A DNA stretch of 64,000 nucleotides from a virus, in IMG/VR virus record IMGVR_UViG_3300032157_000001, positions 307,505-371,504 of that record. One strand, 5' to 3'. A model generated the notes under the pieces. That model searched no databases. It was not told the origin of the DNA and saw nothing but the letters and a program-made list of their open reading frames with translations. Made by a program: the position numbers and the translations under genes. Shown here piece after piece: positions 8,171 to 8,527 of the stretch (within the stretch, counting starts at the first letter, position 1; each line of letters opens with the position of its first letter).

Positions 8171-8262
8171 AAAAAAAGCAATTGCTCTGACGTTGAGCTA
8201 CAATCTTGCAGTCCGGACTACAATTTAAGATAGGTGGGACACCAACCCACAACTATTGCTTC
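8171..8262 (-). ncRNA. Circularly permuted tRNA-like element P1
   Basis: Read on the minus strand the parts come in the order: anticodon-stem 3' strand GCAAT, 4-nt variable loop, T-arm GTGGG-TTGGTGT-CCCAC, acceptor 3' strand CTATCTT plus A; then a palindromic spacer TTGTAGTCC/GGACTGCAA; then acceptor 5' strand AAGATTG, T8-A9, D-arm GCTC-AACGTCA-GAGC and anticodon-stem 5' strand ATTGC. Acceptor strands pair 6 of 7 and the anticodon strands 5 of 5. The D-loop has GT in place of G18-G19 and the T-loop has G in place of C56. Confidence 0.6.
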
Positions 8263-8264
8263 AG

Positions 8265-8336
8265 AGACCATGACGGGAGTCGAACCCGCAACCTTTCGTT
8301 TTAGAGGCGACTGCTCCACCATTGCGCTACACGGTC
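8265..8336 (-). tRNA. tRNA with CUA anticodon (putative amber suppressor)
   Basis: Every arm length is standard (72 nt): acceptor GACCGTG/CATGGTC, D-arm, anticodon loop CTCTAAA giving CUA with U33 present, variable AGGTT, T-arm GCGGG-TTCGACT-CCCGT. The anticodon stem has mismatches at 27-43 (G-A) and 31-39 (C-A). TAG is used as an ordinary stop in this window, so recoding is not obvious here. It sits between the two permuted elements. Confidence 0.72.
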
Positions 8337-8346
8337 ATCAATAAGG

Positions 8347-8527
8347 TAAACAACAAGCTGCTCTGACATTGAGCTACATCCGTGCACTCCGGATTACACA
8401 TATCAAACACTAACGTTTCCCTGTTGACTTGATCATCGTTAGCAGCGATAATCTTTGTAGCGCCTTTGCTCTGGTAAGTGTCTTAGTTTGGTGGATGACG
8501 GGAACCTAACCCGCAACGACCTGTTGT
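8347..8527 (-). ncRNA. Circularly permuted tRNA-like element P2
   Basis: Minus-strand order: CAGGT, variable CGTT, T-arm GCGGG-TTAGGTT-CCCGT, acceptor CATCC followed by ACCA; about 110 nt later a palindrome-like GTGTAATCC/GGAGTGCAC, then GGATG, T-A, D-arm GCTC-AATGTCA-GAGC and GCTTG. GGATG pairs with CATCC, and GCTTGTTGTTTA pairs over 12 positions with TAAACAACAGGT (two G-T). The 19-56 contact would be U-A here. Same layout as P1 with different stem sequences. Confidence 0.55.

What the first reader, a model, noticed from the sequence alone, without database searches (positions are those of the whole stretch)
8171..8527. Two circularly permuted tRNA-like genes with a swapped 19-56 tertiary pair
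Seen directly: in both elements the T-arm/acceptor-3' half comes before the acceptor-5'/D-arm half. The halves pair only within each element: P1 acceptor AAGATTG/CTATCTT and anticodon stem ATTGC/GCAAT; P2 GGATG/CATCC and a 12-position helix. A palindromic spacer just before the 5' half is shared (TTGTAGTCC/GGACTGCAA and GTGTAATCC/GGAGTGCAC) with compensating end changes. Both replace G19 by U and C56 by A or G, keeping a possible pair. Permuted tRNAs are known from some algae and archaea, where splicing endonucleases process them; I know of none in phages. Inference: the RNA ligase and Pnkp encoded here could join the ends.
Basis: partly seen in the sequence, partly recalled or inferred. Interest (0 to 1): 0.93.

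Follow-up and report, generated by a model that had tools for sequence, protein, structure and literature searches.

The report
Ro-less Y-RNA-like phage tRNA mimics
Between the tRNA genes of a giant bacterial virus lie two small RNA genes that keep the tRNA 'elbow' but have its parts in rotated order; they match the tRNA-imitating half of bacterial Y RNAs rather than tRNAs that must be cut and rejoined, and they lack both the Y-RNA partner protein gene and its usual binding motif.

Summary
On the minus strand, P1 (8264-8171) and P2 (8532-8337) have the order: closing-helix strand, T-arm, acceptor 3' strand, spacer, acceptor 5' strand, UA, D-arm, closing-helix strand. Scores this high for both never occurred together in 1000 shuffles. 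Two further elements were found: one at the corresponding place in the tRNA array of a relative jumbo phage (G018, terminase 71% identical) and one in L005. Across the four, 87 of 88 pair cells form, 13 of 22 pairs changed on both sides, and the closing helix (8-12 bp) forms only within each element. All have U19 facing G or A at 56. The reading 'permuted tRNA gene, joined by RNA ligase' is probably wrong. The same permuted order defines the tRNA-like module of bacterial Y RNAs (Rfam YrlA), which I found near Ro genes in about 35 phage loci; three permuted modules met without using Ro all lay in Ro-encoding phages. But P1/P2/L005 lack the Ro-binding motif, and no Ro gene is detectable in G000 or G018. 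Best reading: Ro-less Y-RNA-like tRNA mimics bounded by tRNA genes, probably baiting or tethering a tRNA-binding host factor. The effector is inferred. New variant of a known kind.

The parts
8171..8264 (-). P1, whole element (94 nt), between tRNA-CTA (8264-8336) and the 97-nt tRNA (8074-8170); its first base C8264 is also C74 of the upstream tRNA
8255..8262 (-). P1 closing helix, 5' strand GAAGCAAT (8 bp with 8175-8182)
8234..8250 (-). P1 T-arm GTGGG TTGGTGT CCCAC (G56 in place of C56)
8227..8233 (-). P1 acceptor 3' strand CTATCTT (6 of 7 pairs with 8201-8207)
8208..8226 (-). P1 acceptor loop (19 nt) with hairpin; its CCGGACTGCA block resembles that of P2
8201..8207 (-). P1 acceptor 5' strand AAGATTG
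8184..8198 (-). P1 D-arm GCTC AACGTCA GAGC (G18, U19)
8175..8182 (-). P1 closing helix, 3' strand ATTGCTTT, followed by TTTT up to the next tRNA
8337..8532 (-). P2, whole element (196 nt), between tRNA 8533-8605 and tRNA-CTA 8264-8336
8519..8530 (-). P2 closing helix, 5' strand TAAACAACAGGT (12 bp with 8347-8358)
8498..8514 (-). P2 T-arm GCGGG TTAGGTT CCCGT (A56 in place of C56)
8493..8497 (-). P2 acceptor 3' strand CATCC
8382..8492 (-). P2 acceptor-loop insert (111 nt), ending in hairpin GTGTAATCCGGAGTGCAC that carries CCGGAGTGCA
8377..8381 (-). P2 acceptor 5' strand GGATG
8360..8374 (-). P2 D-arm GCTC AATGTCA GAGC (G18, U19)
8347..8358 (-). P2 closing helix, 3' strand GCTTGTTGTTTA, followed by a 10-nt tail up to tRNA-CTA
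8264..8336 (-). tRNA (anticodon CUA) between P2 and P1
8533..8605 (-). atypical tRNA (GAA loop, T-loop AGCGTAA) whose 3' end sets the start of P2
   Evidence: 42.4 bits
8074..8170 (-). 97-nt tRNA directly after P1
22697..23830 (-). HNH + RNA_ligase (Rnl2-type) protein; context only
   Evidence: PF09414 1.2e-27
27444..28370 (+). Pnkp (kinase + HAD phosphatase); context only
   Evidence: PF25109 1.9e-40

Best explanation
P1 and P2 are genes for small non-coding RNAs that imitate the tRNA elbow in the manner of the tRNA-like module of bacterial Y RNAs (YrlA), reduced to that module with a short closing helix and without the Ro60 tether. Shown by sequence: permuted order, closed acceptor, closing helix, retained D/T-loop contact positions with U19-R56, pairing kept by compensating changes, and position flush between tRNA genes. 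Inferred: the RNA is cut out by the ordinary processing of the flanking tRNAs, folds without ligation, and binds a host (or phage) factor that reads the tRNA elbow. Being uncharged and without a free anticodon loop, it would act as a bait or tether, most plausibly for a tRNA-cleaving defence nuclease or an RNA-degrading enzyme such as PNPase, to the benefit of the phage's large tRNA set. The conserved block next to the acceptor would add specificity.
For: Rfam YrlA has the same arm order, and known phage Y RNAs near Ro genes share T-arm / acceptor hairpin / UA / D-arm with strong covariation. Blind test: permuted modules found only through D-arm patterns (L074, L096, L111) all lay in Ro-encoding records; four comparison records without one had no Ro. 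A model made from 35 Ro-linked modules matches P1 at 33.1 bits with all model pairs but one, although tandem normal tRNAs can reach such scores. L111 shows that a Y RNA of a Ro phage can carry a roughly 100-nt acceptor-loop insert like P2's. Four elements in three phages: 87/88 pair cells, 13/22 pairs changed on both sides, closing helix private to each element. The G018 element sits in the matching tRNA neighbourhood (Ser-GGA ... Thr-GGT, Leu-AAG). Conserved acceptor-loop block CCGGACTGCA / CCGGAGTGCA / CCGAAGTACA / AGGAAGTACA (read).
Against: No Ro-binding motif (0 of 3 elements, against 31 of 35 Ro-linked modules) and no Ro gene in G000 or G018, so half of what defines a Y RNA is missing. 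Rfam YrlA does not match P1/P2. The elbow differs from all 35 Ro-linked modules (C56 in every one). No expression data; host and effector unknown; the decoy or tether role has no direct evidence here. Neither whole P2 nor whole L005 is recovered by the module model.
Confidence: 0.65

Rival explanations
1. True circularly permuted tRNA genes: the ends lie in the anticodon loop, are healed and sealed by phage Pnkp and RNA ligase, and RNase P and 3' processing then open the acceptor end to give a working tRNA.
For: 3' half before 5' half; the phage encodes Pnkp, Rnl1- and Rnl2-type ligases, with relatives in G018. In all four elements the first bases after N73 of the upstream tRNA read C-N-N-A-R (CTGAA, CATAA, CTAAG, CAAAG) and the other strand supplies YU, so a 33|34 joint would give loops CUG, CAU, CUA, CAA (sequence, seen after the fact).
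Against: The C is simply C74, found after N73 in the phage's tRNAs. The closing helix pairs through the supposed loop without bulges. Stem lengths would be 5, 9, 6, 7. Acceptor is only 5 bp with 1-72 and 2-71 unpaired in P2, L005, G018. No Rnl1-family ligase in the L005 record (a 68.7-kb fragment).
Confidence: 0.12
2. Ordinary Ro-dependent Y RNAs whose Ro protein is in a missing part of the genome, is too divergent to detect, or is the host's.
For: Same module order; both records are linear and may be incomplete; some phage Ro proteins are very divergent.
Against: Two large related records (371 and 366 kb) both lack Ro while divergent positives ring. The GGUUAUC-type motif is absent, and the stem ends at flanking tRNAs after 8-12 bp, leaving no room for the usual Y stem.
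Confidence: 0.12
3. Relics of tandem tRNA duplicates with the outer halves lost.
For: Permuted order arises simply that way; the genome is full of tRNA genes and some look odd.
Against: Relics would not extend complementarity 3-7 bp past the anticodon stem, nor keep it by double changes in four elements, nor keep 15-48 and 19-56 contact possibilities.
Confidence: 0.05
4. Only processing or termination signals of the tRNA transcript (hairpin spacers; P1 ends in a U run).
For: P1 has a helix followed by seven U; the elements fill the space between tRNAs exactly.
Against: P2, L005 and G018 have no U run of that kind; a spacer does not need D- and T-arms with elbow contacts.
Confidence: 0.04

Closest known systems
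Bacterial Y RNAs, YrlA class (Rfam RF02553), including those of Ro-encoding phages
   Same: Permuted order T-arm, closed acceptor helix, UA, D-arm, with 5' and 3' ends paired; phage examples lie close to tRNA genes.
   Different: No Ro-binding motif, no Ro gene, short closing helix ending at neighbouring tRNAs, U19-R56 elbow, 5-bp acceptor with long insert in three of four.
Circularly permuted tRNA genes of red/green algae and Thermofilum (PMC3978253, PMC3218864)
   Same: 3' half encoded before 5' half.
   Different: No bulge-helix-bulge junction, no free anticodon loop, no 7-bp acceptor in three of four; no splicing endonuclease known to be in play.
Two-piece (permuted) tmRNA
   Same: Permuted gene, tRNA-like domain, long helix in place of the anticodon arm (recalled, not tested).
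   Different: Full D-stem present, no tag reading frame recognised; no Rfam tmRNA match in the window.
yjdF riboswitch tRNA-like fold (PMC9142559)
   Same: tRNA elbow used outside its normal role.
   Different: Arms are in ordinary tRNA order; cis-regulatory in an mRNA leader, not a separate RNA between tRNAs.

Membership tests
Y RNA / YrlA | tRNA-like module in the order T-arm, closed acceptor helix, UA, D-arm | tested here: met
Y RNA / YrlA | 5' and 3' ends of the RNA pair in a stem | tested here: met
   8, 12, 10, 10 bp
Y RNA / YrlA | Ro-binding motif (GGUUAUC-type) in that stem | tested here: not met
   0 of 3 (P1, P2, L005) versus 31 of 35 Ro-linked modules, background 7%
Y RNA / YrlA | Ro60/TROVE protein encoded in the same genome | tested here: not met
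   with positive controls; records may be incomplete
Y RNA / YrlA | Match to Rfam RF02553 | tested here: not met
   no match in G000 or in 8000-8700; Ro-linked phage Y RNAs themselves score only 34-37 bits, under the cut-off 69
Y RNA / YrlA | Binds Ro and an effector such as PNPase | not testable with these tools
   needs biochemistry
Permuted tRNA gene | 3' half precedes 5' half | tested here: met
Permuted tRNA gene | bulge-helix-bulge at the junction | tested here: not met
   continuous 8-12 bp helix
Permuted tRNA gene | 7-bp acceptor able to become a charged end | tested here: not met
   5 bp with positions 1 and 2 unpaired in P2, L005, G018; P1 6 of 7
Permuted tRNA gene | joined RNA has a proper anticodon loop | tested here: inconclusive
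   possible loops CUG, CAU, CUA, CAA, seen after the fact; the helix occludes them
Permuted tRNA gene | ligated or circular intermediate | not testable with these tools
   needs RNA-seq
Two-piece tmRNA | degenerate D-arm and tag frame | tested here: not met
   4-bp D-stem present; no tmRNA match in the window

The most novel reading that the evidence does not exclude
Phages carry genuine circularly permuted tRNA genes, cut out by processing of neighbouring tRNAs and sealed between U33 and C34 by the phage's own Pnkp and RNA ligase: tRNA maturation by the repair pathway that T4 uses against anticodon nucleases.
Probability: 0.1. Interest if true: 0.93.

Novelty: new variant of a known kind. Interest (0 to 1): 0.62.

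Why it matters
In what I could read, Y RNAs are described as Ro60 partners whose tRNA-like half has an uncertain role. A conserved form without detectable Ro, bounded by phage tRNA genes in a genome with an RNA-repair kit, suggests that the tRNA-like half has a job of its own, and gives a small, defined RNA with which to find what it binds. It also shows that permuted tRNA order in a phage need not mean permuted tRNA genes, a trap for automated searches.

Tried and rejected
(1) blastn of the region and of P2 and the L005 element against 50,697 phage records: nothing useful. (2) Neighbour-protein search for relatives (10048-10983): none. (3) Pattern CATCCA-N75..105-GGATGTAGCTCA: only L005 was permuted among 28. 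(4) Wobble-C34 / anticodon idea: weakened because C74 follows N73 in the phage's tRNAs. (5) R1 as a detector by score alone: rejected, since the T-arm of one tRNA plus the D-arm of the next scores as high; replaced by structure filters that exclude ARAGORN tRNAs. (6) Vibrio phage pir03 has Ro, but no YrlA or permuted module was found beside it. (7) The window's vWA proteins as Ro: no TROVE domain. (8) D-arm pattern in bacterial genomes: six hits, all ordinary tRNA-Thr. (9) RNAalifold on the four elements missed the closing helix because MAFFT gapped it; pairs were tabulated from a manual alignment instead. (10) The 19-56 change as a mark of permutation: rejected, since U19 with A56 also occurs in normal-order phage tRNAs.

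Full report
What is there. The window is G000:C1:307505-371504, the end of a 371,504-base virus record, a distant T4-like jumbo phage by its terminase, with more than 43 tRNA genes in the window. On the minus strand, between tRNA genes, lie P1 (8264-8171) and P2 (8532-8337). In each the order is: closing strand, variable stretch, T-arm, acceptor 3' strand, spacer, acceptor 5' strand, UA, D-arm, closing strand. P1 fills the gap between tRNA-CTA and a 97-nt tRNA; P2 fills the gap between an atypical tRNA at 8533-8605 (42.4 bits) and tRNA-CTA.

More than chance. On 1000 dinucleotide-preserving shuffles of the window, the same scorer reached P1's score in 11 shuffles, P2's in 1, and both in none. 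The D-arm string GTAGCTCAAYGTCAGAGC occurs only at these two places in the window with up to three mismatches; 0.02 expected.

Relatives. Scans of 2.9 million viral contigs gave one further element in L005 (IMGVR_UViG_3300045107_000440), between a tRNA-Gly (read by eye, 6566-6639) and tRNA-Cys. The phage's own terminase led to a 366-kb relative, G018 (71% identity), with one D-arm match. There the element sits between tRNA-Arg(CCG) and tRNA-Thr(GGT) in an array Ser(GGA), Arg, element, Thr(GGT), Leu(AAG). The window, read on the minus strand, has Ser(GGA), tRNA 8533-8605, P2, tRNA-CTA, P1, 97-nt tRNA, Thr(GGT), Leu(AAG). In 3.44 Mb of fetched DNA a structure search put P2, L005 and G018 at the top; P1 ranks with the noise on that measure alone and rests on its likeness to P2 and.

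Constraint. Over 22 pairs (closing 8, T 5, acceptor 5, D 4) and four elements, 87 of 88 cells pair and 13 pairs show changes on both sides that keep pairing, including G-C to A-T in the D-stem of G018. The closing helix is 8, 12, 10 and 10 bp within elements and at most 3 when strands are crossed. All four keep A15-U48, G18-U55 and U19 facing G56 (P1, L005, G018) or A56 (P2). In normal tRNAs of the fetched loci G19 goes with C56 in 45 of 45; U19 with C, G or A (11, 2, 1). So the 19-56 change is not special to permuted genes, but it is constant here.

What it is. Rfam's YrlA model (bacterial Y RNA) has exactly this order: stem, T-arm, closed acceptor helix, UA, D-arm, stem. YrlA is described as 90-150 nt, ends paired in a stem that holds the Ro60 relative Rsr, with a tRNA-like domain of D, T and acceptor arms (PMC8394870, section 3.3). 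Ro genes occur in about 340 phage records and 222 viral contigs. Near them I found about 35 such modules with very strong covariation (99.4% of cells paired, 12 of 15 pairs changed on both sides). Permuted modules met without any use of Ro (L074, L096, L111) all proved to lie in Ro-encoding records, while four comparison records had none. L074 and L096 carry the same module sequence, so these are two independent cases rather than three. L111's module carries an acceptor-loop insert of roughly 100 nt, like P2's.

Where it differs. P1, P2 and L005 lack the GGUUAUC-type motif that 31 of 35 Ro-linked modules have close upstream. G000 and G018 show no Ro: G000 by Pfam, by profile and by a local HMM of 82 phage Ro proteins, G018 by that HMM, which finds divergent Ro proteins at 1e-14 to 1e-30. 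Rfam YrlA does not match. The elbow is U19-R56, whereas all 35 Ro-linked modules have C56. The acceptor is 5 bp in three of four. A block next to it is shared: CCGGACTGCA (P1), CCGGAGTGCA (P2), CCGAAGTACA (L005), AGGAAGTACA (G018). By the membership rule this is not filed as a Y RNA; it has the architecture of the Y RNA's tRNA-like module.

How it probably works (inference). The flanking tRNAs set the ends, so ordinary tRNA processing would release a closed tRNA-elbow mimic that cannot be charged and offers no anticodon loop. Salmonella YrlA has been suggested as a competitive inhibitor of an anticodon nuclease, and Deinococcus Y RNA tethers Rsr to PNPase (PMC7790460). In a phage that carries dozens of tRNAs, Pnkp and RNA ligases, a bait or tether for an elbow-reading factor is the most economical role. 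Which factor is not shown.

Pnkp and ligases are present and shared with G018, and joined loops with plausible anticodons can be written for all four. But the helix runs through those loops without bulges, the acceptor is too short in three of four, and the supposed C34 is the C74 found after N73 of the phage's tRNAs. I keep it at about one in ten.

Limits. Four elements from three phages; no transcript data; host unknown; both large records may be incomplete. The C-N-N-A-R coincidence and the conserved block were noticed after the fact and were not tested statistically. The pair table rests on a manual alignment.

Noticed in passing
window 8074-8170 (-): 97-nt tRNA found by Rfam but not by ARAGORN, with about 42 nt where the anticodon arm should be (insert or odd arm).
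   Followed up: partly
window 8533-8605 (-): Atypical tRNA (T-loop AGCGTAA, GAA loop), 42.4 bits, absent from the whole-window scan and found only in the small-region scan.
   Followed up: partly
window, tRNA genes: The ARAGORN tRNA genes encode N73 and C74 but not the full CCA.
   Followed up: yes
window 8264-8336 (-); also L300: tRNAs with anticodon CUA (amber) in G000 and in G018, while several long ORFs of the window end in TAG.
   Followed up: no
L111:5914: Ro-linked Y-RNA module with an acceptor-loop insert of roughly 100 nt in a 480-kb phage.
   Followed up: partly
L270:2570-2730: Well-formed Y RNA with GGTTATTC/GAATAACC stem and D-loop AACGTCA in a 59-kb record without detectable Ro.
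   Followed up: partly
L008:3330-3460, L062:1948-2065: Normal-order phage tRNAs with U19, A56 and long inserts in the anticodon arm.
   Followed up: no
L239:6582 (-): Possible further permuted module with D-loop AATGTCA, a 5-bp hairpin and an interrupted closing helix.
   Followed up: partly
window 19284-21557 (+), 3772-4578 (-): Two vWA-domain proteins near the tRNA array; neither has a TROVE domain. The smaller has a relative in G018.
   Followed up: partly
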